Part shown: positions 25,551-58,470 of the stretch, one piece after another
Position numbering within the stretch: position 1 is the stretch's first letter
Layout: each line of letters starts with the position of its first letter
Assembly (NCBI GenBank): GCA_947650285.1
Contig: CANTFL010001264.1
Span: forward strand, 400,487-464,486
Direction of reading: 5' to 3'
Length of the DNA stretch: 64,000 nucleotides
From: Hyaloperonospora brassicae
Lineage: Eukaryota; Oomycota; Peronosporomycetes; Peronosporales; Peronosporaceae
Notes under the pieces: model-generated
What the model was told of the DNA's origin: nothing
What the model saw: only the letters and a program-made list of their open reading frames with translations
Databases searched by the model: none
Made by a program: the position numbers and the translations under genes

Positions 25551-25564
25551 TGTGTGTATGAACA

Positions 25565-26215: not shown

Positions 26216-26289
26216 GGATATATGGACGGATGGATGGGTGTACGGACGGATGGATTAAAAGTTGTACTTTTACATATATAAATGCATCT

Positions 26290-37447: not shown

Positions 37448-37929
37448 TGTAGCGGAGCTACGCAGCCCCTAAAGTTAGAAGATGATTTAACGCTCAACGA
37501 GCAACTTTCGTTTAAAGAATCGACTCTGAGAATCAACAAGCTTGAGAGCTTACGGTCCTTGTTTTAGGGGGACCAAACGATTCAAGAGAATCACTTCACA
37601 GAGTGCTCAATAGCAGCTACCTTTACAGGCGTTGGTAACTCTTACGATCAAGACGCCTCGGAAGGCACGTGTCTTATGAAGATCAAAATGGGAACTGAAC
37701 TTTTTTTCTCTGTTTTTATTTAAACATCTTAACCAACGAACTTAATCTAAACACTAATGTTCTAATTAATACCTCTAAAAGGATCTCCTAATACGGTGGA
37801 TGACATGCGTCAGCCTTCGACAATCAATATGGTGTTCTTTTTATCATTTTTAACGGGACTCCGTTCCTTGTGGGGCCACGCAGGTTATGTAACCCGTTAC
37901 ACCCACACCTGTTGTGTAACTGCGTTTCA
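37448..37929 (-). repeat. 3' LTR of element 1
   Basis: 482 bp, the same length as its partner. In element orientation it begins TGAAACGCAGTTACACAA, directly preceded by a purine-rich GAGGAAGG polypurine tract (around 37932-37939). Confidence 0.9.
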
Positions 37930-37978
37930 ACCTTCCTCAACAGACTGATGTTACTACGAAACGTTAATCAAATTTTTT

Positions 37979-39363
37979 TTGAAGCGTTTGGCGTGTGTGC
38001 GCTTTTATTACACGCTTAGCTATACACAAAACACCTTGGTATCGCCACCCAACGAGACTCGGACTCTATTTTTCTACCTCGACTTCGATGAGGATGTGGA
38101 CTATGGTAGCGATACCGATTTCCCTGGGATGGAGGGATATTGTCCTACTCATCTGTGCCTGAGGTTTTACCTCTCACAGCACCAAATCCGTTCGTCGAAC
38201 GTGATGAAACCACTGAGCCAGCAGTGCAGCATCATGCAACAGATATACGTGAACTCATCATCATCAATTCGCTCGACGAGAAACAGTAGTCAATCCTCCA
38301 GCTAGATAAGAGTCTCCGAGGTTACGCTCATATTCTGACGTTCATTTAAAGTCCGAGCGGTATGTGTTTTCAACACCAGACGTGGAGCAACATCTCTGTC
38401 AAACTGATAGCCGTTTACTCGCAACATGGGCCATATATCCAGCGGCTACGTCACCAGAAGATATTGCGTTTCGCAAGGTTCTGCATGAGAGGTATATTAA
38501 AGCGTTCTTGACCACACAAGGTATTTACCTTTCGCGCCTTAAGAGCCTATCTCGTGGTGTTTCGGCTCGACCGACTAAGAACTTGCCCATACTATTGTTT
38601 GCTGGCGAGTTGCCCTAAAAGGAGGACAACCAGTTCGTCCGCTGGGTGTACCACAAGCGGCATCTTAGCAGTGTGCCAGCGCTTAGGGCAAGTATCGATG
38701 TGGCTGACGTTCGGCTGGAACGAAAGCTTCGCTACTAATACGCCAAGCTCAAGCCCAAAGGCCAATTGCATACACGTTCGCGCTATGTATCGCTACACCG
38801 GTGCTCACGGATTCGGACCCTAAGGTGAGGAGAAACCCGCTACCTCCTTCCACTATTAGTAAGACGCGTTCTCGGTCGCAGGGCGAACCTGGCCAAGATG
38901 TTAATAACATTTACGGCGTATGGGCAGTCCTGCCGAAAGGGTATCTCTTACTCCCACGAATTCTCCGACGCCGGGTAGCCTCGTCACTTCACCAGATACC
39001 GGTATTAGCCATGACGACGACGTCGCTTCAGGATATTCTCTACATAGAGCTGGCAGTTCCCTTAATCATTAAGCAGCGTCGGTGGTGGTCGTTGTATCAA
39101 AGAAGGAGCATGAGAAGGTGCTGCTTAAGTTTAGTGGTCTCCGTCAGACATTGAGTAAGATCCAGAGTGCGTTCGGCGCGATGTAAGCCCGTGTTCAGGC
39201 GTTAAAAACGGGTCAAGCCCGTGTACAGGCATTAACGTTGAGTCTACCCCGGGTGGAGGGTCAACTTGACCTCAAGATTCGGATGCAGCAGCCGACGTCA
39301 AGGCCATGTTACCCGGCGCAAGCGCCTCCAACTTCACATGGAACGGATTCCGATAAGGCTTTC
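37979..39363 (+). pseudogene. Antisense ORF relic inside element 1
   Basis: Between the integrase end and the 3' LTR the better coding frames run on the plus strand, opposite to gag-pol. One frame (about 38364-38830) gives LPILLFAGELP, a TAA at 38616-38618, then KEDNQFVRWVYHKRH. A later frame (about 39060-39369) has one in-frame TAA and then an Ala/Arg/Val/Gln/Leu repeat (ARVQALKTGQARVQAL), which looks like a heptad coiled coil. I do not recognise the protein. Some gypsy lineages carry extra antisense or third ORFs in this position, so it may be an accessory gene; it could also be a nested old insertion. Confidence 0.4.
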
Positions 39364-39455
39364 ATAATCTAACGTAGAACATGGGATGTACGCGAAGTTT
39401 GCGCGGAAGAATAAGCGTTTACACAAGTCCCGTTTTAGCAACGACCGTGAATGGT

Positions 39456-40420
39456 TTAATGAAGCGCAAACGCGGCTTCGTCTTGAAGACGACGGACATA
39501 ACATTTGTAGGTAGGTTTTAAGATTAAGTAATACTTGGTCTCCGACCTCATAACGTTCGATACATCCTCTGCTTTTAGCATCAGCTTGTTCCTTCTGTTT
39601 GTCTTGGCTTTCAGCCAGTGTATCACGCACATGTCGTAACACATTTTATTGCGTTGCGAGAATTTGATCATCTGTTTGTGAACAGTGGCAGGGCTGATAT
39701 CAGCAGGCCGATCGGACATCTCTCCCCAAAGAAGCCCTGAACTACGCAGTGGTAGCGCTAACGGAACGCGATTGTGTGTGAGACCATTAAAGTAAAACGG
39801 AGTAAAGCCGGTGGAGGCATGCACGGCGTTATTGAACGCAAGTTTAACGATAGGGAGCATCGAGATCCATCGCTTAATCGTTTCAGCGCAACACTACGCA
39901 AGATGTCACCGATGATGCAATTTACTCGCTTGATTTGATCATCTGTCTGCGAATAATCCGCTGTGGACGTGTCCATTCGTGTACCAAGCACCTTAAAGAC
40001 GGGTTTCAAAACTTCTTAGTGAAGCGAGGATCTCTATCAGAAACAATTTACAGTGGCAAACCATGTTGTCAAAACACTCGATCAATTAACATCGTAGCTG
40101 TACCCTACCCATCAATGGTATCTGACAAAGCCGCCAAGTGATCCATCTTGGATAAACGGTCTACAAAGACCACAATACCCGTATTGCAGTAAACATTTTC
40201 CAGCTAACTAACCAAAACGTCCATGCTTATGGACTTTTAGCACCAGCAAAGTATAGGTAGACTAGATATCGGTGCAGCCGCATGCGCTGAGGGTTTCACC
40301 CGTTGACACGTTCTGCACGTACGCACATATCTGCTGACCCATTTGTAAAGTTTGGGCCACCAATAAATTGGATCAGAGAACAATAGGTCTTCTATCGACC
40401 GAGATGACCGCTCACCGCAG
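39456..40420 (-). pseudogene. Element 1 integrase relic
   Basis: The minus frame 39758-40009 reads KVLGTRMDTSTADYSQTDDQ, the region holding the last catalytic Glu motif of gypsy integrases (normally HPQTDGQTER); here the Gly is replaced and the Glu region reads IKRVN. The overlapping frame 39456-39860 continues with LAFNNAVHASTGFTPFYFNG, the conserved segment after the core. Upstream core motifs are scattered with stops up to about 40420. Not functional. Confidence 0.8.
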
Positions 40421-40534
40421 TATGATGTGCCTCATAGAGAGTACGGTGCTTCACGTCCTTATCATGAGAGACGACGATACGAGGAGTATTATGAACCTCT
40501 GTGCGATACACTACAGGCCTTGATCGATGAAATA

Positions 40535-42030
40535 TTAACGTATCCTCGCACGCAAACGTGCCGACAATATAATGTCTAAGTCCTTAAACTCCTCGCTCTC
40601 AAGAGCACGTAGCAGAAACACACAGTGTTCTTCTTTGGCATATGCCAAACGAATGAGATCAGTGACCGACGACTTCAGAGTCGTTACATGAGCAAGCGCA
40701 TGGTTAGGCCTACGTGACAACGCATCAGTCAAAGCATTCTGCTTGCCTGGCTTAATATTCATCTCGAACTTGTATTCGTCAAATAATGAAAGCCAACGAG
40801 CCATTCTTTGAAAAAGGTGTGTCGATTGCGTCGCAGTGCGCCTTGACGCATGATCGGTATATATCACAAAAGGCTTTGAGCCAAGTAGATGAGCTCTGAA
40901 TTTGACGAGAGCATGAATCATTGCAAGTAGCTTTTTATCATGAACACGGGGTAGGTCTTCTTAGCTGCTTTCAGCTGACGAGACTCATACGCAATGACAC
41001 GTTCCCGTCCCGCAACATCTGTTTGTATAAGAGCACTGCCGATGGCGCTGAAAAGACGATCGGGTTCGGGCAAAGCCAAGGTTTGCGTATGAAGGAGACT
41101 CTCTCTAACAGCAATAGAAGCTTAATGCTCGGTTTTAGTCTGACACCACCCCACATCCTTTTATGGAGATTGGATAATGTTCGAGCCATGTCCGCATAGT
41201 TTGAACTATACTTGTATAGGTAATTTGCAAGACCAAGCTACTTACGGAAGTCCTTTTGGTTCTTAGGATCCGTCTTGTTGACTATGAAGTTTATCTTAGC
41301 GGGATCTGCTCTAAGTCCACGCTATCCGATGAAGCACCCTAAGAATAGAATCTCTTATGCACCATAGATGCATTTATAGGCGTTGCCATTCAGCTTATTT
41401 GTGCGCATGCACTCGAGCACTGCTTTATAATGATTGATATAATTATCCACATCTGACCGACCGTTCATAGAACGATTATGGACAAAGATGTCATCATAAA
41501 ATATGTCTGTGCATCAGATCTATGAGTTCGAAACAGTCGTGTCAAAAGACGTTTAAACGTCGCCGGGGCATTTAAATACCTTTGTGGCATGACGAGCCAC
41601 TCCAAGGTCATATAGCTCGGAGTACTGACCGCTGTCAGCGGGATGTCGTTCTCTCGCATGTGAAAAACTAGTAATAACCACCGCCTAAGTCGAGCGCACT
41701 GTACATCGTGTATTCCACCATGTTGTTCTGAAGAACAACTTTCCTAGGGGATTGATGTCTGAGCCAGGATGGTGGCAGCATTACGCCTTTTGTAAGCACG
41801 AACAAATGCCACTTTTAATTGGCCTTTCTGACACAGAAGGTTTGTGTAAAATAGAGGGATTTACTCTCACGAATCATTTCTGCCGCGTGCTTTGCACGAA
41901 ATAAGTCTTCAATGACGTCACTCTGTTCCTTTTGTAAAGACAACTGCCGCGTTACGCAGTATTCAGTTCCAGGAAGTAGGTCATAGTCATGACGAACACT
42001 CTATCAGGAGGTAAGGCAGACGGTGTCTCG
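40535..42030 (-). pseudogene. Element 1 reverse transcriptase-RNase H relic
   Basis: The minus frame 41465-41659 carries RENDIPLTAVSTPS and LEWLVMPQ...NAPATF, conserved gypsy RT motifs around the palm domain. The catalytic YxDD appears eroded (near ...YFMMTS). Further on, VIAYESRQLKAAKKTYPV (near 40920-41000) runs into a frameshift, then MIHALVKFRAHLLGS and IYTDHASRR...DALSRRP (40535-40921). These are the RNase H core and the conserved linker to integrase. These activities would copy the element RNA to DNA; this copy is dead. Confidence 0.8.
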
Positions 42031-43030
42031 TGACACACCACGTCTTGCAAATTCTTTTACCAAAATATAAAAAAATCAAGAGGATCCTAAAGGATCGCGG
42101 ATCCACTACACGCGCTAATTGTCACCTTCTTGTCCTCAAGAAAAGCCTCGTCCAAAAATGAGGATGTGTTTAACTCAATATCGGGTCGGATGACCACTAA
42201 ATTAGATAGCTCTTTCTGCCTGCAAATCTTGGCTATATTTGCCATCCGGAATTTCGTTTAGATCAAATATAGCGTATAAGGACGGAAGATTCACGAGACG
42301 TATGTCACCATCAACATGATCAGTCACTCCTTTGACTAGTGTATATAGTGTATTCTTAATAATATCACTACGGGACGTCTCGGACGTTCGCCGCTTATCA
42401 GCTGCCACCCGAAGCCAGAATTGGCGAGTTGAGGACTCATTGCGACTCTCAAACGCCGCGACAAAAGGGTCCCTGTAATTATTATATACCATAACACTCT
42501 CTATACAAATGCTCATATTTGAGCGACATCTGGTGGGAAGTTACGAAACTTGAACTATTTATCCAGTAAATTTTCAAGTACCACTTCACATACATTATGT
42601 GAGCATTGCCCTGAATGCTTCAGCTTTTTGCCAACAATTTCATAATCGACATTTAGTGAGGTGCCATCCCGGCCGCTCTCACTCGGTGGAATTTCACGTG
42701 CCATCCCACTCATATCAGATAAATAACATTCTAGATGACTCGGTCCTAGGCCAACCATGATGCAGCATGCAGTACCTAATTATCACAACGAGTATCACTC
42801 AACGGAGTACAACCCTCTTAACATACGGCGAAAGAGCTCCGATCAATATTCATCTCACCGACATTATAGTTATTCAACTCGTACATACCAATGTCCAGCA
42901 CGTTGACATCTTCCGTTAATGGCTCGCGCCAATAATGCTTTGGTTGTCTGGCAAAAATGGGTTCACGACTCTCTAAAGCTTCGCTAAAAACATTGCGCGT
43001 GGCGCTTAAGGTCTTAGAACTCCAATCAAT

Positions 43031-44520
43031 TTATGGCTCATGGAGTTCGAGCCAGTCCATGCTTAAGATGAGATTGTATCTCGATTCCAAGTCAAGAAGG
43101 AGACAGCATTCTGTGCTATCAAAGTCCAAAACCTTTACACCAAAGTTAAACGAAACTTTATGCACAGTGACGCGACTACCCTTCGCTAGAAGAACGGTGA
43201 TTGAATAAAGCTCGTGCGCTTTGAGCGTCTCAGCGTATCGCTGAATCCCCTCAAGGGAACGGCTTCGCGCGTAGTTGCATGACACTCCGAATCAATACCG
43301 ATTTACCAGTGCTTCTTAAAGTCTATAACCAAGGCCTCGGTGACTACAAAGCCAGGCGTGTATCCACGCTCTTTGCTGGCTGGACAGATGATCTGTGGGG
43401 CTAAGTCTTGTTTCACTGCACCTCGTAGAGAAGTAACAGAACTAATTTCTACCTCAGTAGGGCACCCCGAGCCTACTAAGTGTCGACGTTTCCCCACGGC
43501 ATACTAGGTTTCTTGTTGAGGCTGGGGTTTCGACCCATATGAGTCGGTCGTTGCTTACGCAAAGGACAAGTGGGACGCAAGCGTTTGGTTCTTCCGCACG
43601 TATAACAACGTCTCACTTCCTGTCGTTGCTTGACAACTTGAAGTTTAGCTTCACCTTCATCTTCAACATTGCTAAGATACATCGGTTCAGGTTTACAGTA
43701 AGCTGATTATTTGCTGAGGTTGACCTCGCATCACTTGGGTTTTACCTGTTCCAATCAAGTATGGCCGACTTGAAGTTGTACTCAGCATTTTGTACGATGC
43801 TCACAGCCTCTTCAAACGTTAAGGGGTGGACTTAAAAGACCTCGGTCCTGATAACGCCAATGCGATGACCTTCCATGAAGACTGTCACGCAGACGATCTC
43901 CGGGAGAGGGTCGGACTGCATAGCATTCATCAAAGTTCTCAACTCTTGGGCTTATCACGTTAACTCATTCTTACCCTGAAGAGTAGATAAGAAGCGTGAG
44001 CGCACGCGGTATGCCTGGTTAGGCGGCGAGAAAACTCGAAAGAGGTCTAGCTTGAGCTAATCTCATGTAGGAAACGCCAATTCAACCGACAGCCGCACGT
44101 GAGAGCCCCCTCTTTAGCTCTTCCATCAAGATTATACGGGGCTCGCGAAACTCGCTGATGCTGAAGTGATATTAGCTCAGATCTCATGGCCATCTCACAG
44201 ATCCAGAGGGTAAGCTTTCCCCCTCCTTCCCGGAGTAATGGTTGACGTCTACCCCTAGGGTACGAGGCTTCGTCTCTTCGTCTGGCATTTCCACGTAGCG
44301 GGTTGGCATAGCCGACGCCACTTGTTTTTAAACCTGATCTAAAAGGCCTGTTTTATACTGCATGAAGGTCTCGACACGCGCTTTGAGCACTTCGGGACCT
44401 TGCGCAGCTAGGAAATAAACGTATTCTGGGTCTACGGCAGCGGTCAGCTTATCGAGCGCGACCTTTTGATTCTCATTGAGGATTGTGGATTGCTCCATCC
44501 TCACAGAAGATCAGTCGTAA
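43031..44520 (-). pseudogene. Element 1 gag and protease relic
   Basis: On the minus strand, 43476-43682 contains CYTCGRTKRLRPTCPL, a retroviral-type zinc knuckle (CX2C-X4-H-X4-C) in which the His is replaced. Following frames at 43303-43497 and 43031-43285 resemble the Ty3/gypsy aspartic protease, ending in LDLESRYNLILSMDWLELHEP-type sequence, the usual C-terminal part of that domain. Gag upstream (to about 44520) is recognisable only by position and by broken frames. Gag would form the virus-like particle and protease would process it. Several frameshifts separate the pieces, so no functional product is expected. Confidence 0.7.
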
Positions 44521-44536
44521 AAACTTAGGCGTAGAT

Positions 44537-44554
44537 TATGTACAAGTGCTACCT
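44537..44554 (-). promoter_or_regulatory. Primer-binding site of element 1
   Basis: Two bases inside the 5' LTR the element reads AGGTAGCACTTGTA. It differs from the TGGTAGCACTTTGTA of element 2 at the first base and by one T. The TGG of the canonical site (complement of a tRNA CCA end) is mutated here. Confidence 0.6.
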
Positions 44555-44556
44555 GG

Positions 44557-45038
44557 TGTGGCGGAGCTACACAGACTTTTAAGTTAGAAGATGAATTAAC
44601 GCTCAACGAGCAACTTTCGTTTAAAGAATCGACTCTGAGAATCAACAAGCTTGAAAGCTTACGGTCCTTGTTTTAGGGGGACCAAACGATTCAAGAGAAT
44701 CACTTCACAGAGTGCTCAATAGCAGCTACCTTTACAGGCGTTGGTAACTCTTACGATCAAGACGCCTCGGAAGGCACGTGTCTTATGAAGATCAAAATGG
44801 GAACTGAACTTTTTTTCTCTGTTTTTATTTAAACATCTTAACCAACGAACTTAATCTAAACACTAATGTTCTGATTAATACCTCTAAAAGGATCTCCTAA
44901 TACGGTGGATGACATGCGTCAGCCTTCGACAATCGATATGGTGTTCTTTTTATCATTTTTAACGGGACTCCGTCCCTTGTGGGGCCACGCAGGTTATGTA
45001 ACCCGTTACACCCAAACCTGTCGTGTAACCCCGTAACA
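44557..45038 (-). repeat. 5' LTR of element 1
   Basis: 482 bp. In element orientation it begins TGTTACGGGGTTACACGA and ends ...GCCACA. It closely matches 37448-37929 and adjoins the primer-binding site on its lower-coordinate side. Confidence 0.9.
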
Positions 45039-45394
45039 CTTACTCTACGTCCAGCGCAATTATTTCGAGGAGCACGTGCCTGAGCATAGGACGACCGGAA
45101 TGCGACTGAAAAAGCGCGACATTCGGATGATTCGTCCCCACACAAGCGCCTTGATGTGTCTGCTGGTGAGACCGCGTCACATGCTCAACGAAGCATTTAC
45201 GATAATTGGAAAAGCACCGCTCGTACTTGGCATAGCTATGTATGTGCAGACAATGCGTCTTGGTCTAGTATGCAATTGACACTTTTTCGAAGATTGCTCG
45301 CACTCGATCGCCATAAAAGCAAGAACGAAAACATCGCCACAGTAGAATATACTTCGAGCGACTATGTTTGGCTTACAAGAGAAACGAGCGAATG
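45039..45394. other. Spacer between the two gypsy elements
   Basis: 356 bp with three overlapping short frames, none recognisable. It shows no similarity to either LTR. It may be original host sequence into which both elements inserted. Confidence 0.5.
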
Positions 45395-45837
45395 TGTAAC
45401 GGGGTAGCCCGTTACATGAAATTGTCATTAAAACAATCTGACAATAAAGAATCTTACGTCGAATATTCTTTTAACAATATCACAGTCATGTCTGTGATAT
45501 TGTTAGGATGATCGAAGGGTCTACTCATTGGTGTATATCGTGATGATATCAACCCACCAATCGCTGCTAGACGCGCGCAATGGGTGGTGAGTAGACGTCA
45601 TCATACATATAGTTATATTAGTATAATTTAGTCAGGATAACAGAAGATTTAAGGTGTTATAGGACTTAGTTATATTAATACAGTTTTACTTTTACAAAGA
45701 GACTAGTCTGACTACTTAGTCTCCTTTCCTTCCTATGTGTTCCTTCAACACCTAGTAGGACACTGTCGACCACTGTCGTCAGTGGAAGTATACTCCGTAC
45801 TGGTCAACCAGTACGCAGTCAACAGTGCCCCGTTACA
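45395..45837 (+). repeat. 5' LTR of element 2 (443 bp)
   Basis: It begins TGTAACGGGG and ends CCCCGTTACA, a 10-bp terminal inversion. Internal hairpins include TGTAACGGG/CCCGTTACA at 45395-45416, a 14-bp-arm stem around TAACAATATCACAG at 45472-45505, CCACTG/CAGTGG at 45770-45785 and GTACTGGT/ACCAGTAC at 45797-45814. Related copies lie at 14373, 51908 (remnant), 53063 (inverted) and 57947. Confidence 0.92.
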
Positions 45838-45839
45838 CC

Positions 45840-45857
45840 TGGTAGCACTTTGTAGTT
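45840..45857 (+). promoter_or_regulatory. Primer-binding site of element 2
   Basis: TGGTAGCACTTTGTAGTT starts two bases after the LTR. The leading TGG pairs with a tRNA CCA end. The same site, with one substitution and one missing T, primes element 1. I cannot name the tRNA from the sequence alone. Confidence 0.7.
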
Positions 45858-45983
45858 CGTCTAAGGACCACAACCCCATCGCTCAACATGAACATGTTGG
45901 ATGATGTAGACGGCGACAACTTTCACGGAACCCGTGAAAGCTACTCTTATTTGAGCGACTTTGAATAAAGTGCGATCGAACGA

Positions 45984-47008
45984 ATGAGTTCGACCGTTGG
46001 CGAGGAAGTCATCTGGGCCATGCTATCCTCAAAGTATAGAGGACAGCAACATGTCGTCAATAGCAAGTTGTTGCAACGAGAATTTGATGAGTCGCGAGCG
46101 CGGGTGGCCTTGTTACGACAACAAGATCACCAGCGGACCGAAGCACTGAGACAACAACAGTCTCAGTCCGCAGAGCCGACGCGTGAGCGTCGACGGGAGT
46201 CTCTAAAACTAGAGGTCTCCAAGTTTCGGGGAGTCAAGAAAGATCCCTGTTGAGTTGGTTCGTCGAGCTGGACGATGCCATCGATGCTCGTCGCATCGAC
46301 GATGAGCGAATGCAAGTCTCATTCGCTCAGTCTAACCTGGCAGGAGAAGCCAGAGCTTGGGCTCTGAATCTTAAGCTACACGACCCAAATGTGTTTGGGT
46401 CGTTGAGGATCTTCAAGGCCCTGCTCAGTGAGACGTTCGAGCCGCCCAGAGCAGAGTTCAGGACTCTTTCGGAGCTCCTGCAACTCAAGCATGGTGAGCG
46501 TAAGGTTCACGCTTACTCTTAGCATGTACGCTACCTTGCAAGCTGCATGGTAGTGAACCCTGTGAGTGAGTTTGTGTTGATCATAAACTTTATTCAAGGG
46601 CGTTCAGACAGTTTCGTTAGGGACCACCTGTTTCGCGGAGAGCTAATGGCGCTCTCAGAGGCAATCTTCGCAGCGGAGCAAGAAGATTATAGCGTGAGAT
46701 AGTCTCACGCTACATTGACCCCGCATCGTCCACAAAGACGATTAGCAGTCGGAGGTCCAAAACCAATGGAATTCTGTGATGTCGACTGCGAGAAACCTCG
46801 CCCTGCTAATGACAAGCGAATGGTGAGATGCCATCGCTGTCATAAACTGGGACACTACGCATACGAATGCAGTATCCCTCGCTCCGAACCTCGCGGTGCT
46901 GAGTGCAGGATTCACTCACTAGCACGAAGAACTGGTAGGCGAGGATCCGTTGCTGTTGAGAAGTCGCAACAGCGAAGCGGACCATCAAAAAATGGTCGGG
47001 TACAGTAG
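45984..47008 (+). pseudogene. Element 2 gag relic with intact zinc knuckle
   Basis: The reading starts at 45984 and shifts frame near 46245. The second part contains WFVELDDAIDARR, FAQSNLAGEARAWAL and FEPPRAEFRTLSELL, blocks typical of oomycete gypsy Gag. A TAG at 46520 and another near 46700 interrupt it. Downstream CHRCHKLGHYAYEC is a complete CX2C-X4-H-X4-C zinc knuckle for RNA binding. Gag would assemble the particle that packages the element RNA. The N-terminal part is Gln/Arg-rich and probably helical. The frameshift and stops make it a pseudogene. Confidence 0.85.
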
Positions 47009-47019
47009 GGTCGGAGCAC

Positions 47020-47700
47020 CCTAATGATTCAGCAACATCAAGAGAATTTGCAAATCTCCTGAAGAAGGTTGCTCCCGACACACAATTTCTGTGTGTCTCT
47101 GCACCTGGTGATGAGGTGTCTCCTATCACCTTGAAGTTAGAAGTGACAAAAGACTTGTCACTTCGCGCCCTAGTTGAATATGGGTCGTCGAACAATTTTG
47201 TTCGTCGCCAGTCGCTAGAGGCAGGAAGTTCTAACTTCGTGGAGCGGGAGATCCCTCCAACGAAGATGACGGTGCGCCTAGCGACAGGCGCATCGATCAC
47301 TGTGAAGAAACGTGTATTTGAAATTCACTACACGTTGAAAGACGAACTGTACGATGATGACTTCATCGTACTCGACCTAGATGACAAGTTCGACGTCATC
47401 TTAGGGTTGCCTTGACTCAGGATATACGAGCCAAGGGTGATTTGGCAGTATTGATCGGTAACGATACCTGCTACTTGTTCCTCAGATAACCATCTGACGA
47501 ATATCTTGGAACGCCCACACTCACGTGTGTGTACTGCGAGTGAGTGCGATGGCCTCACTTGTGATACGATCGTTAGCACGACTGTACAAGAACACAATGT
47601 AGATGATCACTACATTGTGGAGAAAGTTATCCCAGATCCTGTGAATGTGACTTCCCAGGAAGTAATCGAGACAGTGAATGTCTTGGTTAATGATGGATAA
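47020..47700 (+). pseudogene. Element 2 aspartic protease relic with lost active site
   Basis: The frame contains LRALVEYGSSNNFVRRQSL and, 80 residues on, VLDLDDKFDVILGLP, the two ends of a gypsy retropepsin domain. The catalytic D-S/T-G triad is replaced by E-Y-G, so cleavage activity is lost. A TGA at 47413-47415 replaces the Trp expected after LGLP, and further stops follow near 47449 and at 47698. The whole stretch is in the same frame as the downstream RT, so it was one Pol polyprotein. Confidence 0.85.
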
Positions 47701-47730
47701 AGCGTAGGCGCTTACACGCTTGATCTGGTT

Positions 47731-49140
47731 GTGCCTCCGAAACTCACTTCGGAGATAACTCAATTGCCGACGCTAGAGCCGAAACGGTTCTTGCGTGATC
47801 TGCGTAGTAGCAAAGTCAAGCAGATCTGTGAACTCGTCGCGGAGGACGAGTACGTTACCAATATTCGATCGGCAACGGTGTTTACTGAGACCGAGGCGTT
47901 TCTCAGCAGTTCATCGACGGACGAAAGCGTCATCGATGAGAAGACTTGGATTGAGAGATATGAATCTCAATCCTGGAAGGCGCTTCAGGCAAATCATTTG
48001 TATAAGGATTTGATCAAATTCAGGGATGTGTTCCCTGAATCTGTGCCGTGCGAGTTGCCTAAGGAACAAGGCACTCGACACGAGATCGAGCTCAAATGGA
48101 GCTCGAAGTACTGTGTCATGAAGTAGTGGCCACTGCCTCGTGAACAAGTACTAGCGATCGACAGGTTGTTTGCCGATCGCTTAGCAGCAGGCCATGTGAG
48201 GGAATCGACATCCGCTCACAGCTCTCCGACCTTCTGTGTGCAAAAGGCCACAGGAGGATGGCGGATAGTGCACGCATATAACAAGTTGAATGCTGAAACG
48301 GTACCGACTCAGGCGCCGATACCAAGAAAGGACGTCATCGTAGATGGTATATCGAAGACTATCTCCTTTTCGTCAATGATTCTGATGGATGGATTCTATC
48401 GGATCCTCATGCGTGAACGGGACATCCCGTTCACGGCAGTGAGTACCCCCAGCGGGATGCTGTGGGAGTGGCTAGTGATGCCACAGGGGCTGAGCAATGC
48501 CCCTGCAACATTCAACAGATGTGTCACAAATCTGTTGAGACCGGTGCGAGACTTCGCACCGAGTTACTTCGACGATGTGTTCGTCCATAGCCGGGCTATG
48601 GACGGAAAGACGGTGTGGAAGTTCACAGAACTCACGTTCGTCAGGTTTTTCAAACTTATGCGCAGGCATAAGTTGTACGCCAACCTCAAGGAGTGTATAT
48701 TCGCGGCTAGCGAAATACCACTTCTTGGGTGCATCGTGGGTAAACACGGCGTACGCCCTGATCCCGAAAAGATCAAGGCGGTCACCGACTGGCCAGTGCC
48801 AGTCAATGTCAAGGAACTAAGGAAGTTCCTTGGGCTAGCGGCGTACTTGTACAAGTACTCTCGCAGCTACGCCGAGATGACTGTTCATCTTTCTTGCTTG
48901 CTCAAGAAAAATGTCAAGTGGTCATGGAACACTGAGTGCCAGCGTTCCTTTGAAGGTATCAACCAAAGCTTGATGCAGTCGCCGATCTTGGCGATTGCAG
49001 ATCAGGACAGACCATTTCATGTGGTCTGTGACGCCAGCGATTTTGCGATCGGCTGTGCGTTAATGCAGTTTGATGCAGATGGCGCGGAGCGCGTCATCTG
49101 TTACCAGTCGCGTCAGCTGCAAGCAGCTGAACGCAATTAA
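47731..49140 (+). pseudogene. Element 2 reverse transcriptase and first part of RNase H
   Basis: One frame runs from 47731 to 49140, broken once by a TAG at 48124-48126 where a Gln is expected (KxWPLPREQV). In the 324-codon part from 48166 the RT motifs are present: motif A Asp at residue 75 (LMDGFY), MPQG at 105-108 and the catalytic YFDD at 134-137. Leader sequence such as RERDIPFTAVSTPSGMLWEW is typical of gypsy RT. RNase H begins with VVCDASDFAIGCAL and ends at a TAA at 49138 where the family has Tyr (ERNxPVHDKE). RT and RNase H residues look otherwise intact, which points to fairly recent inactivation. Confidence 0.92.
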
Positions 49141-49143
49141 CCA

Positions 49144-50664
49144 GTGCATGACAAGGAACTACTTGCCATGAAGTACGCACTGGCTAAGTTCCGGGTCTAT
49201 CTCCCAGGAGATAGACTGTTCATCGTCGATACGGACCATGCGCCACTACGCACGGCCGTAACCATTCCACACCTCTCGCAAAGAATGGCGAGGTGGCTGT
49301 CTTTCTTCGCGGGGTATAACTTCTCCGTGGAGAATAAACCAGAACGACTAAACGTCGTCGCTGATGCGCTCTCGCGCCGGCCCGATTTCGAGCCGGACGC
49401 ACAAATCTACAGTGAGGCCTTGCCCACTGTTTCGACACTGTCAGTCAGTGTTCCGTCGTCAAGTTTGATTGAAAACGTACGAAAAGCATACGCAGAAGAT
49501 AATGATCTTCTGCGATTGATGGATCATCTTGTGAAACCATCCAGTAAATCCATGAGGGATTTACCGGTCCTGTACCGTTCCTTTTTGGATCGGAACACTA
49601 CTCGCAATGGCCTGCTGTACTATACAGCAGTTGCCGACGACACGCCTCGTGTCGTCGTTCCCGATCATGATGAATTGCGATTACGCGTCATGTTCGAATG
49701 TCACGATGCGCCGTCTGGCGGGCATCGTGGCCGAGAAAAGACTTACTTCACGGTCAGTCGTGAATTTTACTGGCCCCGCCAGTATCAGTTTGTCCGCAAG
49801 TACATTCTTCATTGCGAAGTCTGTCAATGGGTTAAGCGTAGTCCTTCATCCCGTGCACCTTTACTTCCTCTGCCTGTTCTAGCAAAGTGTTGGGAGTCCG
49901 TGTCCATGGACTTTGTCTTCGGGTTTTTCGAAGACACTAACAAGAGCAATGGTATTCTTGTCTTTGTGGATCAATTCAGCAAGACGGTACATCTTACTGC
50001 AGTCCCAGAATCGATCAACGCACATGGCTGTGCGCATTCCTTCATCGACACTGTGTTTCGACTCCACGATTTACCACGTGATTTCGTATCCGACCTTGAC
50101 ACTCGGTTCACGGCGGCGTTTTGGCAATCCGTGTTCCGCACATTGGGAACACGTTTAAAGATGTCAACCTCTGACCATCCCGAAACAGATGGTCAGACAG
50201 AACGTGCGAACCGTGTTCTCGAAGAAATTATTCGTGGATCCGTCGACTCCTTTTCACATTGGAGTGAGTTCTTATCGATGGTTGAGTTTGCCATCAACAA
50301 CTCCGTGCATGCGTCCACAACGCATACACCGTTCTACGTGAATGGCTTACGCCACCTACTACTTCCCGCCCTCATACAGAGTGACTTTGAGTTACGGAGG
50401 GGAGGGACTCTCTCGAGCAAAAACCGTTTTGGCTCTTGCTCATCACGTATCAACGCTCACGCCGATACGTTTGATGCCGATGTCGACAACGTCGACATCG
50501 AGGAAATCGAGCTTAGAAGTAGCAATGACGCTGCTGCTACATCAGACAATGATGACGATGCTGGGATATTCAGCATCGTCAACGACAATGCCAGCGAGGA
50601 AGAAGACAACCTCGCTGAAGAAGAGAACGATGTCTTAGTAGTGCGCACAAGGCGCACTGAATAA
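49144..50664 (+). pseudogene. Element 2 RNase H C-terminal part and integrase
   Basis: A 506-codon frame continues the RT frame after the TAA at 49138. It opens with the rest of RNase H (HDKELLAMKYAL, VDTDHAPL, VVADALSRRP). Integrase follows, with its zinc domain (His187, His194, Cys224, Cys227) and the complete catalytic triad Asp256 (SMDFV), Asp317 (VSDLDTRF) and Glu353 (TDGQTER) in D,D(35)E spacing. FAINNSVHASTTHTPFYVNG closes the core. The last ~80 residues are acidic and low in complexity. Integrase inserts the cDNA into the genome. This domain set looks intact, but it lacks an open upstream reading frame. Confidence 0.92.
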
Positions 50665-51552
50665 CACAACAACGAGTCAGCAGAGAACTTCCTGCCGACT
50701 CGAGAGGCGATAGTCCGTTTCGTTCAGGACTCCATCGCAAATGCGGTCGACCGCCAGAAACGGAACGCAGACAAGAATGGAAGATCAAATGTTCTCTTTT
50801 TAAGGTTAACGACCTAGTGCTACTGTCTACGGTAAACTTACCTAGACATGTGGTCACTAGTGTCGGCAATAGTAAACTAATGCCGAAATACGTTGGTCTA
50901 TTTCGTGTGTTGCACCGCAAGGGCAATGCATTCACGATTGAGTTGCCTCGTAGGATGCGCACGCATCCTACGTTTTATGTAGGTCGTCTCCGCCCCTTCC
51001 ATCAGTGCGAGACCTCTTGCGAGAACGGAGATAACCGGCGCGCTCAAGAATCCCCAACCGATTATTCTGATCACGGACCAAACACTGAAGTTGGTCCTTC
51101 GTCGAAAGGAGTTGGTCCTTCGTCGACGCGGCTCCGCGACGAGCCGTCTCTAGCTCGACGCGCAAACGACGCCTCTCTCGTTTACTCTCAAGCTAAGCGA
51201 ACGCGAATTCTGATCGTTTCTTCTCCCAATTGGCAAGAAGACGTCGCACGTACGACTACAAGGCGTGCCGTAGGTTGTATGTGTGATCGACGTCCTCCCT
51301 CAGCTTGGTCCGGTAACGCTCGTGGTTACCCAAAGTCTCGTGCAGGCCCGGCGGCTGAGCCGGAGCTTGTCTTTCCACCGCCACCGGAACCACTGGTGGA
51401 TTTCCATCGGTGGTCAACGCTTTCTTGTGGAGCGTATCTTGAACCACCGTGGCGATCTAATATCAAGAACGAGTTACCTCGTCCGGTGGCGTAGGTACCC
51501 ACCTTCCATTGACAGCTGGGAACCTCGTTCTCAGCTGATGGCTGACGTGTAA
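50665..51552 (+). pseudogene. Element 2 integrase C-terminal and chromodomain-like region
   Basis: After a TAA at 50662, and then a frame change near 50795, the sequence reads NDLVLLSTVNLP...KLMPKYVGLFRVL...FTIELPRRMR...THPTFYVGRLRPF, the GPY/F-type integrase C terminus. A last frame (51283-51552) ends FLVERILNHR...YLVRWRRYPPSIDSWEP, which has the aromatic and WEP pattern of a chromodomain. In chromoviruses this domain steers integration to marked chromatin. At least two frameshifts separate the parts. Confidence 0.8.
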
Positions 51553-51907
51553 GGTCTCGTCCACCAGTATGAAGAGACTCATCCGATAGGTCCTCGGGCC
51601 CATCGGTAAACACGCGCTTTTGGCGCTTGTAGACGGATTGCAAGTTTGCAATCGCGTCCCGCATCTAAGCCGAGATATGTGCCTTTTCCCAAGGCGAAAT
51701 TGGGGAATATACGTTCCTATGCGCACGTTGCGAGTTGTCAGCACAACTCGCACAAGGATCACCCCAAGTGAGGCAAGGAATGCCGGCCTCGCTTGACAAA
51801 CAATGCAACCGGTACCTTGCACCGGTTGGTGTTCGCTTTTCAAACTTGAGGCGTATCGCCTCAAGCTATTTTAAGCCACCCTTCTCGTCCAAACTTCTTG
51901 ACCTTAA
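51553..51907. other. Element 2 3' untranslated tail with dense hairpins
   Basis: Non-coding tail between the chromodomain stop and the LTR remnant. It holds perfect stems at 51636-51653 (GATTGCAA), 51729-51752 (TGCGAGTTGT), 51806-51828 (CAACCGGT) and 51845-51865 (CTTGAGGCG). About 350 bp of the expected 3' LTR is missing here. Confidence 0.7.
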
Positions 51908-51997
51908 ACACCTAGCAGGGCACTGTCGACCACTGTCGTCAGTAGAAGTATACTCCGTACTGGTCAACCAGTACGTAGTCAACATTGCCTCGTTACA
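51908..51997 (+). repeat. Truncated 3' LTR of element 2 (last ~90 bp)
   Basis: From CACCTAGCAGGGCACTGTCG to the terminal CTCGTTACA it matches the end of the 5' LTR (about 45748-45837) with a few substitutions. Upstream similarity to the LTR stops abruptly, indicating an internal deletion of U3 and most of R. Confidence 0.85.
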
Positions 51998-52402
51998 GCA
52001 TGAGTGGACATTTGAAATTTCGACGTGCTAGGACATTCGCGACGGCTGTCCAGCTATGCCGCGCAAAGGGGGCTGATATTCTTGTTTTTGCTCGTCCGAA
52101 TCAGAAAGATGCTACAAAAAGAAAGGAATGCTTTACTTGCAGTTTACAAGGAAGAGAACTCCAATGCGTCAATTTAATCATAATATGTCGGCGGGAGAGG
52201 CTGAATACACCTAACATAATGGCTTAAGACACCACGCCCCTATCCATTAGACCTATAGTTTTACGACAACCGTTGTATCACATTCGGGCCATGTCTATTT
52301 GAATATTACGGTATAAGTGAAGTAGAAAGGCACCTGTTACATAGCCGCGTCAATTCAAAAAGAAATTTCTCTTTGTCTAGGGCATGATGATGAGCCCTTC
52401 AT
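51998..52402. other. Flank downstream of element 2, no gene
   Basis: Short frames only; nothing recognised. Confidence 0.5.
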
Positions 52403-52518
52403 CCACATCCACTGGTGCTGCTGCCACTGCTACGGTCATTCATACTGATACTCATTCTGTCCACATCCACTACTTCTGCTGCCACTGCTACAGTTGTTAA
52501 TGCTGATACAAATTCTAT
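52403..52518. repeat. 58-bp tandem duplication (2 copies)
   Basis: CCACATCCACT begins at 52403 and at 52461, and the shared core is CTGCTGCCACTGCTAC. The copies are diverged. The duplication overlaps the start of the MULE-like relic and encodes a Ser/Thr/Ala-rich stretch. Confidence 0.75.
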
Positions 52519-53040
52519 CGTCGCTGACAATCAGGTTAAGATAAAAATTGATGCTGGCCTTAATCCTGCCGCCGCTGATCTCTCTTGGATCTGTGAAGAA
52601 TCTCCACCAGTCGGGCCTTTTGACCGTCAAAAAACGGCTGTAAAGGCTTTAAAGCAGGACGCCGTACGCTAAGGCGTTGCTATTAGTGTATCCCGCGGCT
52701 GTTCGATTGGTACCAAGCGCAGTTTTCTTACATGTTGGCAGGAAAAGCATCATAGGATATCCCACAGTCGGCACACGTCAATGCGGGATCGCTTAACAAA
52801 AAAGGGAGGCTGTTCGTGCGAGCTCCTAACCATGTATGACATGCACGCCCCCGATGAAATTGCCTGGTCAACGATTTTAGTGGATAACTGGCACACCGGC
52901 CACTATCGTTGTATCAGCAAGACCATGCTATCAACGCCCCCGGCGGCGCGACGTGCGACGCTATACATTGACGATAGCAATTTTACGGTCGCCCAGATGC
53001 ATCAGGATGGACCTGCTCCAAGGGTATGTGTGCGTGTCGA
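52415..53040 (+). pseudogene. MULE-type transposase N-terminal (FAR1-like) relic
   Basis: Two frames, 52415-52672 and 52781-53155, are in the same phase and joined through one TAA. Together they read WICEESPPVGPFDRQKTAV, FGV-like GVAISVSRGCSIGTKRSFL, TKKGGCSCELLTMYDM and WSTILVDNWHTGHYRC. This follows the pattern of the FAR1/FLYWCH-like zinc domain at the N terminus of Mutator-like transposases (PP.G.F, A...V.RS, TKKTGC.F, H.H), with the final HxH eroded. In such elements it binds the terminal inverted repeats. It is cut off on the right by a solo LTR at 53063, and no catalytic domain follows. Family assignment is by motif pattern only. Confidence 0.5.
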
Positions 53041-53062
53041 AGTCATATACAGCAGGCCATTG

Positions 53063-53506
53063 TGTAACGGGGCACTGTTGACTACGTACTGGTTGACCAG
53101 TACGGAGTATACTTCCACTGACGACAGTGGTCGACAGTGTCCTACTAGGTGTTGAAGGAACACATAGGAAGGAAAGGAGACTAAGTAGTCAGACTAGTCT
53201 CTTTGTAAAAGTAAAACTGTATTAATATAACTAAGTCCTATAACACCTTAAATCTTCTGTTATCCTGACTAAATTATACTAATATAACTATATGTATGAT
53301 ATCGTCTACTCACCACCCATTGCGCGCGTCTAGCAGCGATTGGTGGGTTGATATCATCACGATATACACCAATGAGTAGACCCTTCGATCATCCTAACAA
53401 TATCACAGACATGACTGTGATATTGTTAAAAGAATATTCGACGTAAGATTCTTTATTGTCAGATTGTTTTAATGACAATTTCATGTAATGGGCTACCCCG
53501 TTGTAC
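53063..53506 (-). repeat. Solo LTR of the element 2 family, inverted
   Basis: 444 bp, nearly identical to the reverse complement of 45395-45837, including the 14-bp-arm hairpin (the loop differs in orientation only). The distal end reads CCCCGTTGTACA instead of CCCCGTTACA. No exact flanking duplication is visible. It is much closer to the 5' LTR of element 2 than are the copies at 14.4 or 57.9 kb, so it is young. Confidence 0.92.
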
Positions 53507-53895
53507 ATTATCTGTTTTAGTCTGTATGTGATTAATATAGGTTATTGTAAATCAGTTTAAGGTGGCGTGTGTCCATCTGAATGCCAAGAATGTCCACATT
53601 ATCGTTCAAAAGGCAAAGAGAAATAAACTTGGTTGAAAATTACACCCGGAAGCTTCGCTGCAGCGAATGAAGGACCAGCATATTAAATATACGGTTGCAG
53701 TGCTAAGCGCGGGTGCATTTTGATTACCTACTTCTGTAATTTATTGAACTTAGCGTGGCCTGGCTCCGTTACAGGTGCCGTTCTACTTAGCTTATCCTGT
53801 AATTTTCGAAGTGACGTGGCCTAAATGTGATACAACGGTTGCCATATAAACGTTGATTCTAATGGATAGGCGGCGGTGTTTTAGCAATAATGCTA
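53507..53895. other. Intergenic, no gene
   Basis: About 390 bp with short frames only. It does not visibly continue the MULE-like reading on the far side of the solo LTR. Confidence 0.5.
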
Positions 53896-57946: not shown

Positions 57947-58470
57947 TGAAACGGGGTAGGCGGTTACACGAAATTTCTTCAAAAAGATATGGAAATAAAG
58001 AATAACACGCTAAATATTACTATACCAATATCCCTGAGTATAGTGATATTGTTGGGATGACCGAAGAGTCTACTCATTGGTTGATATTGTGATGATATTA
58101 CTTTTTATTATTAATTTTATAGAAAATACTAATTTATTACTAAGTCTATCGTGTGGTTTTATTAATTATTCTATAAGGATTATATCCTCCTCCAATCGCT
58201 GCTAGATTTACGCAATAACGGGTGGTGAGAAGACTTCATCATACCTTTGTTATGTCAATATCATTAATCAATACATACAGAGAATGGGAATTATAGGGCT
58301 TAATTGTTGTAAATAACACTTTCACTTTACCACGACTAGTCTTTACCCTAGTCCTTTCCCTTCCTCTGTGTAGTACCGACACCTATCTGGGCATTGACCT
58401 TCACTGTTGTCAGTGATAGTTAACTCCCTGCTGATATACTAGTACGTAGTCGTCGGTGCCCCGTTACTCA
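57947..58470 (+). repeat. Diverged solo LTR of the element 2 family, with an AT-rich insertion
   Basis: It aligns with 45395-45837 from TGAAACGGGGTAGG to GTGCCCCGTTACTCA. Shared blocks include GAGTCTACTCATTGG, CAATCGCTGCTAGA and GGTGGTGAGAAGAC. It is longer than the family (524 bp) because of about 90 bp of AT-rich sequence at roughly 58100-58190. Divergence is intermediate between the 53.1-kb and 14.4-kb copies. Confidence 0.85.

What the first reader, a model, noticed from the sequence alone, without database searches (positions are those of the whole stretch)
45395..51997. A Ty3/gypsy element packed with perfect short hairpins in LTR, gag, pol and 3' tail
Reading element 2 base by base, perfect inverted repeats recur about every 120-150 bp. 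Examples with arms of 9 bp or more: 45395-45416, 45472-45505 (14 bp), 45920-45940, 46304-46328, 46381-46402, 46690-46712 (10), 47140-47164 (10), 47349-47371, 47593-47619 (10), 47948-47973, 48018-48040, 48412-48435 (10), 48512-48538, 48582-48604 (11, one-base centre), 48653-48674, 48810-48832, 49195-49216 (10), 49491-49514 (10), 49635-49657 (10), 50170-50197, 50478-50500 (10), 50553-50581 (11), 50949-50972 (11), 51729-51752 (10), 51845-51865. Many more have 7-8 bp arms. For random DNA of this length, arms of at least 9 bp with loops of 0-10 are expected well under once (about 6600 x 11 / 4^9, roughly 0.3). They span coding and non-coding parts, so a property of the whole genomic RNA or its copying is implied: selected RNA structure, or fold-back template switching during reverse transcription that copies one arm from the other.
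Basis: seen in the sequence. Interest (0 to 1): 0.9.

Follow-up and report, generated by a model that had tools for sequence, protein, structure and literature searches.

The report
Retrotransposon packed with perfect hairpins
A virus-like mobile element in what is probably a downy-mildew-type water mould is filled from end to end, genes included, with small perfect hairpin sequences that selection has likely kept, perhaps to keep both of its strands folded and hidden from the host's RNA silencing.

Summary
All 25 listed hairpins are at the stated coordinates. The element has 43 perfect inverted repeats with arms of 8 bp or more, against about 1 in shuffles. The window copy is a decayed member of an abundant chromovirus-type Ty3/gypsy family. 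An intact relative, L071, is denser: 111 in 7.8 kb, 66 in pol against 1.9 in synonymous-codon shuffles. Its predicted folding excess is about 50% on both strands; other window DNA and one Copia piece give about 0.

Hairpins mostly stay in place while their sequence changes: paired changes (23 pairs against 3-7 in slid controls), synonymous and non-coding change slowed in stems, protein conservation under stems little changed. That indicates selection on the nucleic acid, not chance, and argues against fold-back copying (new pairs arise in both arms, 34:33). Inside stems G-U is no better tolerated than A-C, so plus-strand RNA folding alone explains it poorly, though loops keep some plus-strand bias. 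Both strands, or DNA, seem to matter.

A related family in the same window (element 1) is packed with 5-bp hairpins, so each family has its own unit size. My mechanism, two-strand folding that prevents sense-antisense duplexes, is inferred and untested.

The parts
45395..45837 (+). 5' LTR (443 bp) of element 2, begins TGTAACGGGG, ends CCCCGTTACA; carries 3 of the 27 hairpins with arms >=9
   Evidence: 99.1% to a minus-strand copy at 53063-53502
46187..46519 (+). gag remnant (Retrotrans_gag), open piece of a broken frame
   Evidence: PF03732 E 6.8e-6
46703..47005 (+). gag remnant with CCHC zinc knuckle
   Evidence: PF13917 E 5.5e-5 (below curated cut-off)
46960..48123 (+). protease-side part of pol, broken into open pieces (46960-47412, 47455-47697, 47701-48123)
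   Evidence: frames; no Pfam match for the first and third piece, the second not scanned; homologous to L071 pol
48127..49137 (+). reverse transcriptase and start of RNase H
   Evidence: PF00078 E 2.6e-16, PF17919 E 5.9e-21
49141..50661 (+). RNase H end and integrase (H2C2, core)
   Evidence: PF17917, PF17921, PF00665 (the last below curated cut-off)
50661..51491 (+). integrase C-terminal SH3-like domain
   Evidence: PF24626 E 4.7e-11
51902..51997 (+). truncated 3' LTR: only the last 96 bp remain (92.7% to 5' LTR)
53063..53502 (-). further LTR of the same family, 99.1% identical, minus strand, with two of the same hairpins
45395..45416 (.). perfect hairpin, arm 9, loop 4
45472..45505 (.). perfect hairpin, arm 14, loop 6 (longest)
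45920..45940 (.). perfect hairpin, arm 9, loop 3
46303..46329 (.). perfect hairpin, arm 10, loop 7
46380..46403 (.). perfect hairpin, arm 10, loop 4
46690..46712 (.). perfect hairpin, arm 10, loop 3
47140..47164 (.). perfect hairpin, arm 10, loop 5
47349..47371 (.). perfect hairpin, arm 9, loop 5
47593..47619 (.). perfect hairpin, arm 10, loop 7
47948..47973 (.). perfect hairpin, arm 9, loop 8
48018..48040 (.). perfect hairpin, arm 9, loop 5
48412..48435 (.). perfect hairpin, arm 11, loop 2
48512..48538 (.). perfect hairpin, arm 9, loop 9
48582..48604 (.). perfect hairpin, arm 11, loop 1 (in the FVHSRAMDG motif)
48653..48674 (.). perfect hairpin, arm 9, loop 4
48810..48832 (.). perfect hairpin, arm 9, loop 5
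49195..49216 (.). perfect hairpin, arm 10, loop 2
49491..49514 (.). perfect hairpin, arm 10, loop 4
49635..49657 (.). perfect hairpin, arm 10, loop 3
50170..50197 (.). perfect hairpin, arm 10, loop 8 (in the integrase SDHPETDGQT motif)
50478..50500 (.). perfect hairpin, arm 10, loop 3
50553..50581 (.). perfect hairpin, arm 11, loop 7
50949..50972 (.). perfect hairpin, arm 11, loop 2
51729..51752 (.). perfect hairpin, arm 10, loop 4
51845..51865 (.). perfect hairpin, arm 9, loop 3
37448..44938 (-). element 1: decayed copy (78.8%) of the related gypsy family L074, whose intact copy is packed with 5-bp hairpins

Best explanation
Element 2 is a decayed copy of an abundant chromovirus-type Ty3/gypsy retrotransposon whose whole sequence, coding and non-coding, is packed with short perfect Watson-Crick hairpins that are likely kept by selection so that both of its strands fold locally. 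Shown by calls: the hairpin excess, its independence of codon usage and composition, its equal strength on both strands, largely conserved positions with paired changes, slowed change in stems, and its absence from other window DNA and one Copia piece. Inferred: that selection acts on folding of both strands rather than on the plus-strand RNA alone. Inferred and untested: that the benefit is to stop sense and antisense transcripts of this high-copy element from annealing into long duplexes, and to make sites and guides of silencing RNAs fold on themselves, as local folding is reported to hinder duplex formation in RNAs copied by Q-beta replicase. Each family has its own unit: about 9-10 bp per stem (most often 23-24 nt across) in element 2's family, about 5 bp (13-15 nt across) in element 1's family; why is unknown.
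For: Excess: 66 against 1.9 (max 5 of 40) in synonymous shuffles of L071 pol; 111 in L071. Folding excess of 200-nt windows: L071 49.7% (+) and 54.0% (-); L074 17.6/21.3%; window element 2 26.2/31.8%; other window DNA -2.2 to 2.3%; Copia piece -0.6/-2.4%. Selection: 4-fold sites of L071 against L072, L073, window: stems 23/182, 19/191, 21/167; outside 137/520, 142/534, 136/473; loops 12/36, 8/40, 13/32. Most of these stem sites pair with a constrained site; those paired with another 4-fold site give 8/57 against 415/1527 outside, p 0.03. Non-coding stem/loop/outside 0.103/0.235/0.204 (L072), 0.190/0.292/0.248 (L073), 0.181/0.328/0.255 (window), stem against outside p 2e-7, 0.009, 0.03. Private mutations fall equally in stem, loop and outside (0.186, 0.170, 0.191), but shared synonymous variants are depleted in stems (35:174 against private 54:149, p 0.017). 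Paired changes in 5 copies over 1.6 kb: 23 pairs (slid 3-7), 35 cells (slid 3-9), 0/500 shuffles. Strand symmetry inside stems: one-mismatch stems GU 23, AC 30 over L071-L073; one-sided changes GU 115, AC 117; L074 one-mismatch frames at shuffle level (GU 36/35.3, AC 25/31.4) beside 121 perfect stems; hairpin energies equal on both strands. Premise: 3 Piwi-domain matches in the genome; in Phytophthora infestans small RNAs map along two Gypsy elements in both orientations (PMC3522703, passages); for Q-beta templates intramolecular pairing hinders duplex formation (PMC6913131, abstract and introduction).
Against: A Copia element of the same genome, presumably exposed to the same silencing, shows no hairpin excess in the 2.5 kb read, so host silencing alone does not predict who has hairpins. 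Why two related families settle at 5 and 9-10 bp is not explained. Some plus-strand signals exist: loops are A- and purine-rich in L071 (p 0.014 and 0.004) and T-rich in L074 (p 0.0008); in L071's 4-nt loops the third base is a purine in 21 of 23 on the plus strand (position picked after looking); just outside L074's stems G-U pairs outnumber A-C 49 to 28 (p 0.02; 17:13 in L071 and 9:12 in L072). Element 1 gives no covariation for the 5-bp family (9 paired changes, slid 2-12), and between full-length copies the paired-change excess is weaker for L073 (29, slid 8-17) and the window (22, slid 5-15) than for L072 (36, slid 6-11). No RNA, small-RNA or probing data were available. The RdRP search did not complete.
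Confidence: 0.37

Rival explanations
1. Plus-strand genomic RNA structure alone: genome-scale ordered RNA structure or dispersed packaging hairpins bound by Gag. The hairpins are selected in the RNA that is packaged and reverse transcribed.
For: Selection on stems and paired changes; loops A- and purine-rich on the plus strand in L071, third base of 4-nt loops a purine in 21 of 23; G-U over A-C just outside L074's stems, 49:28; gag with zinc knuckle; the property is seen in two gypsy families and not in the Copia piece.
Against: No excess of G-U over A-C inside stems in single copies, between lineages, or among shared variants; minus strand equally structured; GNRA, UNCG and CUUG loops hardly differ between the strands, hairpin energies equal; L074 loops are T-rich, not A-rich; spacing random.
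Confidence: 0.3
2. Single-stranded minus-strand cDNA (or DNA cruciforms): the hairpins are selected in DNA during or after reverse transcription, for instance to shield exposed single-stranded cDNA.
For: Watson-Crick only pairing fits DNA, where G-T is weak (established knowledge); DNA-parameter folding excess is as strong (z -5.9 and -5.0); A-rich plus-strand loops of L071 are T-rich loops on the minus strand.
Against: L074 loops are T-rich on the plus strand, the opposite; hairpin DNA energies do not differ between strands; no known partner.
Confidence: 0.15
3. Mutational fold-back: reverse transcriptase folds the nascent strand back and copies one arm from the other, so hairpins arise and are perfected without selection for them.
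For: Perfect Watson-Crick stems, strand symmetry, coding and non-coding alike, family-specific unit length, none in the Copia piece. In L071 alone derived changes are 39 in the 5' and 25 in the 3' arm, the expected direction, p 0.10. Variants at mismatches flanking a stem make a pair in 24 of 56 distinct genotypes, a third expected, p 0.16.
Against: Stems change more slowly than loops and flanks, also in non-coding parts; shared synonymous variants depleted in stems; one-sided pair-making changes 34:33 in 5' and 3' arms over four copies; of 14 hairpins with two or more derived changes 6 have them in one arm only; amino acids under stems about as conserved as outside.
Confidence: 0.12
4. Chance, base composition, codon usage or assembly artefact.
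For: None found.
Against: Dinucleotide and synonymous shuffles; the same density in many copies on different contigs; paired changes.
Confidence: 0.01

Closest known systems
[quoted passage not shown] PMC7642675, abstract and passages)
   Same: Stem-loops along the whole sequence, coding included; excess folding energy over shuffles; a restraining effect of pairing on substitution.
   Different: Here a DNA-integrating LTR retrotransposon; excess about 50% on both strands against 7.5-10.7% in HCV, about 15% in SARS-CoV-2 and 23.4% at most in that paper (other window and shuffle, so rough); perfect uninterrupted stems of a set length; no G-U advantage inside stems; positions largely conserved within the family, whereas that paper reports poor conservation between related viruses.
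RNAs evolved with Q-beta replicase ('fewer unpaired GC rule'; PMC6913131, abstract and introduction)
   Same: Local folding along the strand to hinder annealing of complementary strands; works like my preferred mechanism.
   Different: RNA-only replication by an RNA replicase; the pressure is dead-end duplex during copying, not host silencing; no shared ancestry.
Retroviral and retrotransposon genomic RNA structures (PMC3362945, passages; Ty1 dimerisation PMC5454406, search listing only)
   Same: Structured LTR-element RNA with functional hairpins.
   Different: What I saw of these describes discrete elements, not a wall-to-wall array of equal-sized perfect stems.
Ty3/gypsy elements of oomycetes (Peronospora effusa, Phytophthora, Globisporangium)
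   Same: Close sequence (94% in the RT region to a Peronospora effusa protein) and shared domains.
   Different: Whether those relatives carry the hairpins could not be seen: only proteins were available.

Membership tests
Ty3/gypsy LTR retrotransposon, chromovirus type | pol order protease, RT, RNase H, integrase | tested here: met
   L071 pol: RVP_2 86-188, RVT_1 540-705, RNase H 794-899, H2C2 1017-1074, rve 1093-1186
Ty3/gypsy LTR retrotransposon, chromovirus type | chromodomain at integrase C terminus | tested here: met
   L071 PF00385 1606-1656, E 7.4e-13; the window copy keeps a stretch matching L071 aa 1601-1666 at 51409-51606
Ty3/gypsy LTR retrotransposon, chromovirus type | gag with capsid domain and CCHC zinc knuckle | tested here: met
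   PF03732 E 4.4e-16, Ty3_capsid E 6.4e-9; zinc knuckle below curated cut-off
Ty3/gypsy LTR retrotransposon, chromovirus type | long terminal direct repeats | tested here: met
   L071 310-519 and 7902-8111 100% identical over the 210 nt fetched; window copy has a truncated 3' LTR
Ty3/gypsy LTR retrotransposon, chromovirus type | tRNA primer-binding site | not tested
   none
GORS | folding energy excess along the whole genome | tested here: met
   about 50% in L071, both strands (20 windows per strand); 95-97% of 39 windows per strand with z below -2 (RNA parameters)
GORS | property of the plus-strand RNA (G-U tolerated in stems) | tested here: not met
   inside stems GU is not above AC; at the outer ends of L074 stems GU 49, AC 28
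GORS | pairings poorly conserved between related genomes | tested here: inconclusive
   L071 against L072: 75 of 100 hairpins have a stem of 7 bp or more at the same centre, 16 of 21 where identity is 73% (this pair only); hardly shared with L074 (6 of 81 within 1 nt, 2.7 expected)
dispersed packaging signals | shared loop motif | tested here: inconclusive
   GNRA, UNCG and CUUG hardly differ between strands, but the third base of L071 4-nt loops is a purine in 21 of 23 on the plus strand
known RNA family | match to an Rfam model at gathering score | tested here: not met
   0 matches in window 45000-53600

The most novel reading that the evidence does not exclude
Gypsy retrotransposons of this lineage have evolved a two-strand folding armour: a genome-long array of equal-sized perfect Watson-Crick hairpins, written through synonymous sites, that keeps sense RNA, antisense RNA and cDNA folded and so blinds homology-based silencing. 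The unit size is a heritable family trait (about 5 bp in one family, about 10 bp in the other), and the 10-bp family carries a folding excess about twice the highest value that one survey gives for vertebrate RNA viruses.
Probability: 0.3. Interest if true: 0.92.

Novelty: new variant of a known kind. Interest (0 to 1): 0.82.

Why it matters
A mobile element whose protein genes are simultaneously written as about eighty perfect hairpins (111 with the non-coding parts) is an extreme case of overlapping information: protein and stem are both conserved, through synonymous sites. It gives a natural, high-copy system in which selection on nucleic-acid folding can be separated from protein selection, with a related family of another hairpin size in the same window. 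The lack of G-U tolerance inside stems is the surprising part: it points away from ordinary RNA structure and asks which two-strand or DNA process is under selection. If the folding blocks silencing, it would be a counter-defence carried by the sequence itself rather than by a protein. Five searches of an open-access library listed no paper whose title or abstract start reports such hairpin packing in an LTR retrotransposon; most of those papers were not opened and subscription papers were not searched.

Tried and rejected
Chance and composition: rejected by shuffles. Codon usage: rejected by synonymous shuffles; shuffling only inside blocks of 20 codons leaves a residue (mean 18.3 against 66 observed), as expected when codons stay near their place. 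Mutation bias after insertion: rejected, private mutations ignore stems. Fold-back copying: see rivals. Regular spacing: rejected, gap CV 0.98. Special tetraloops (GNRA, UNCG, CUUG): hardly any strand difference; a purine at the third base of 4-nt loops remains unexplained. Known RNA family: none. Host-wide process: not supported, other window DNA and the one Copia piece are flat, apart from a mild 5-bp excess at 20001-22000 and in the element 1 region. Deep common origin of the two families' hairpins: mostly rejected, 4 exact and 6 near-exact shared centres of 81 (0.5 and 2.7 expected), so a few may be old. Covariation in the 5-bp family: not seen, but the only diverged copy is decayed. Avoidance of the register that pairs third positions with each other holds in L071 (14:34:30, p 0.013) but not in L074 (41:35:33, p 0.62). 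Relatives with DNA in IMG/VR and in the prokaryote genome collection: none found. In one search the copy-to-copy hairpin listing compared L012 in the wrong orientation; only the counts of that call are used. In one search one z-score is not a number; the folding excess of that row is unaffected.

Full report
What was checked. A systematic scan (perfect arms, loop 0-12) finds 43 with arms of 8 bp or more and 27 with 9 or more in 45301-52100; 30 dinucleotide shuffles give means of 1.23 and 0.17. Of 62 in the whole window, 43 lie in the element and 2 in a nearby LTR of the same family. Element 2 has a 443-bp 5' LTR (45395-45837), broken gag and pol, and a 3' LTR of which the last 96 bp remain; Pfam places gag, zinc knuckle, RT, RNase H, integrase and an SH3-like domain.

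The window copy is a decayed member of a large family. In the same genome (100.6 Mb, 898 contigs) a search with the RT scored 119 matches out of 6,024 first-look candidates, at 86-89% amino-acid identity apart from the query's own place; 114 of the 119 have no stop inside the match. The 38 other loci carry 47-56 hairpins (arms >=8) per 4 kb, the window copy 29-30. Of 30 further loci, 24 belong to the hairpin family (6.4-13.9 per kb) and 6 to a related gypsy family (59-62% RT identity; 0.3-0.6 per kb). Four longer stretches were fetched: L071 (intact gag frame of 396 and pol frame of 1,666 codons; LTR pieces identical over 210 nt), L072 and L073 (diverged members), and L074 (intact member of the related family). 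They hold 111, 87, 61 and 2 hairpins, the window copy 43. L071 pol carries protease, RT, RNase H, integrase, SH3 and chromodomain: a chromovirus-type Ty3/gypsy element.

Not composition, not codons. In L071 pol 66 perfect stems (arms >=8) compare with 1.9 (max 5 of 40) when synonymous codons are shuffled; in gag 15 with 0.5. Coding parts have 13.2 per kb and non-coding 18.0, with similar arm lengths. Predicted folding of 200-nt windows exceeds shuffles by 49.7% (plus) and 54.0% (minus) in L071, 26.2/31.8% in the window copy, 17.6/21.3% in L074, 6.2/4.0% in element 1, and -2.4 to 2.3% in other window DNA and the Copia piece. For scale, a paper using 350-nt fragments and another shuffle gives 7.5-10.7% for HCV, about 15% for SARS-CoV-2 and 23.4% as its highest (PMC7642675, passages).

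Selection on the stems. (i) Mutations private to one of 56 copies, mostly post-insertion by inference, fall equally in stems, loops and outside (151 on 814 sites, 40 on 236, 410 on 2150). (ii) Synonymous variants shared by copies are depleted in stems: 35 stem to 174 other, against 54 to 149 for private ones (p 0.017; p 0.015 for variants in five or more copies); non-synonymous ones are not (p 0.52). (iii) At four-fold sites L071 differs from L072, L073 and the window copy at 0.13, 0.10 and 0.13 in stems, 0.26, 0.27 and 0.29 outside and 0.33, 0.20 and 0.41 in loops (36, 40 and 32 loop sites). Most of these stem sites pair with a constrained site, which would slow them under arm copying too; the few that pair with another four-fold site give 8/57 against 415/1527 outside (p 0.03), and in non-coding parts stems differ less than flanks in all three copies (p 2e-7, 0.009, 0.03) and less than loops. 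(iv) In a 1.6-kb stretch of five copies, 23 of 204 pairs changed on both sides (3-7 when partners are slid, 0 of 500 shuffles) and 90.2% of cells remain paired (33-42% when slid; the structure was taken from L071, which favours it); one of the five measures, further pair types, does not exceed its shuffles (285 of 500). Over full-length copies the pairs changed on both sides to Watson-Crick are 36, 29 and 22 for L072, L073 and window, against slides of 6-11, 8-17 and 5-15. Some stems have been replaced almost wholly at the same place, for example L071 664-687. (v) 75 of 100 hairpins of L071 have a stem of 7 bp or more at the same centre in L072, 16 of 21 in the two 1-kb bins at 73% identity (it stopped before the other pairs). 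(vi) Amino acids under L071 stems are about as conserved against L074 as those outside (RT to integrase: 42/66 and 42/64 in the two arms against 319/480; whole pol 60/138 and 72/141 against 505/988), and motifs such as FVHSRAMDG and SDHPETDGQT sit under perfect stems. (vii) In L071 the codon register that pairs third positions with each other is rarest (14 against 34 and 30, p 0.013), in L074 it is not (41, 35, 33). I take this to mean that the stems of L071 were sculpted largely through synonymous sites.

Not plus-strand RNA alone. RNA stems normally tolerate G-U. Here one-mismatch stems are G-U 12, 8, 3 and A-C 9, 12, 9 in L071, L072, L073; one-sided changes between lineages are G-U 115 and A-C 117; among variants shared by copies 18 and 21; the state before a pair was made was G-U 19, A-C 17. 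In L074, 121 perfect stems of five or more pairs (loops 3-5) stand beside G-U and A-C frames at shuffle level. Hairpin energies do not differ between strands. Against this: loops are A- and purine-rich on the plus strand in L071 and T-rich in L074; the third base of L071's 4-nt loops is a purine in 21 of 23 (noticed after the fact); just outside L074's stems G-U outnumbers A-C 49 to 28 (p 0.02), not so in L071 (17:13) or L072 (9:12); and L074's outermost 5' stem base is G in 89 of 204. So a strand-specific component exists.

Not fold-back copying, as far as tested. Copying one arm from the other gives perfect stems and strand symmetry, but does not slow change in non-coding stems, should overwrite one arm preferentially and should change several bases of one arm together. 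One-sided pair-making changes are 34 in the 5' and 33 in the 3' arm over four copies; all derived changes in L071 stems are 39 and 25 (p 0.10). Of 14 hairpins with two or more derived changes, 6 have them in one arm only. L071 stems took up fewer derived changes than other sites (64/1562 against 312/3593). Nine of 111 hairpins were left out for gaps.

Two families, two unit sizes. L074 looked empty at arms >=8, but it is full of 5-bp stems: 145 against 26 in shuffles, and 204 against 108 at 4 bp, loops 3-8; in pol the 5-bp excess lies at loops 2-6. Stems of five or more pairs in L074 are most often 13-15 nt across; stems of eight or more in L071 most often 23-24 nt, with lesser peaks at 26 and 28; pairing around the centres falls to background beyond about 15 and 29 nt. 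Element 1 of the window (37448-44938, minus strand) is a 78.8% copy of L074's family. Hairpin centres are hardly shared between the two families (4 exact of 81, 0.5 expected; 6 within 1 nt, 2.7 expected), so the packing was mostly built separately. The 2.5-kb Copia piece has none (5-bp stems 8 against 8.0).

Mechanism. Shown: hairpin packing, strand symmetry inside stems, slowed and paired change. Inferred: folding of both strands is what is selected. Untested: the benefit. My first choice is that locally folded sense and antisense RNAs (and cDNA) do not anneal into long duplexes and offer no open site to silencing RNAs. The supporting facts are indirect: three Piwi-domain matches in the genome; in Phytophthora infestans small RNAs map along two Gypsy elements in both orientations (PMC3522703, passages); for Q-beta replicase templates intramolecular pairing is reported to hinder duplex formation (PMC6913131, abstract and introduction). 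The Copia result argues that silencing pressure alone is not enough, and an element-specific factor (Gag, RT or the cDNA stage) remains possible.

Noticed in passing
window 37448-44938 (minus strand) and L074: Element 1 belongs to a related gypsy family whose intact copy L074 is packed with 5-bp hairpins, a different unit size from element 2's family.
   Followed up: yes
window 57947-58467 and 14445-14681: Diverged LTRs (70-77% to element 2's LTR) of further subfamilies; the first has relatives of 99%, 84% and 83% elsewhere in the genome.
   Followed up: partly
window 48400-49400 against L002: This kilobase is 96% identical to L002 while the pol region as a whole is about 88% to L071, which suggests mosaic copies (recombination between family members).
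   Followed up: no
window 25510-26345: Five overlapping open frames of 213-267 aa on both strands in one 0.8-kb stretch, as in a repeat or low-stop region.
   Followed up: no
window 52402-52517: Two tandem 58-nt units, 81% alike, just downstream of element 2.
   Followed up: no
   Followed up: partly
window 20001-22000: Mild excess of stems of 5 bp or more (14 against 6.7, z 3.6) outside the two elements.
   Followed up: no
L074 stems: Strand-asymmetric stems: the outermost 5' base is G in 89 of 204, and the mismatch just outside is T/G in 32 and A/C in 2.
   Followed up: partly
G000:C871:95352-104330: Two Piwi-domain matches of equal score in opposite orientation about 7 kb apart (frames 956 and 960 aa), like an inverted duplicate.
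   Followed up: no
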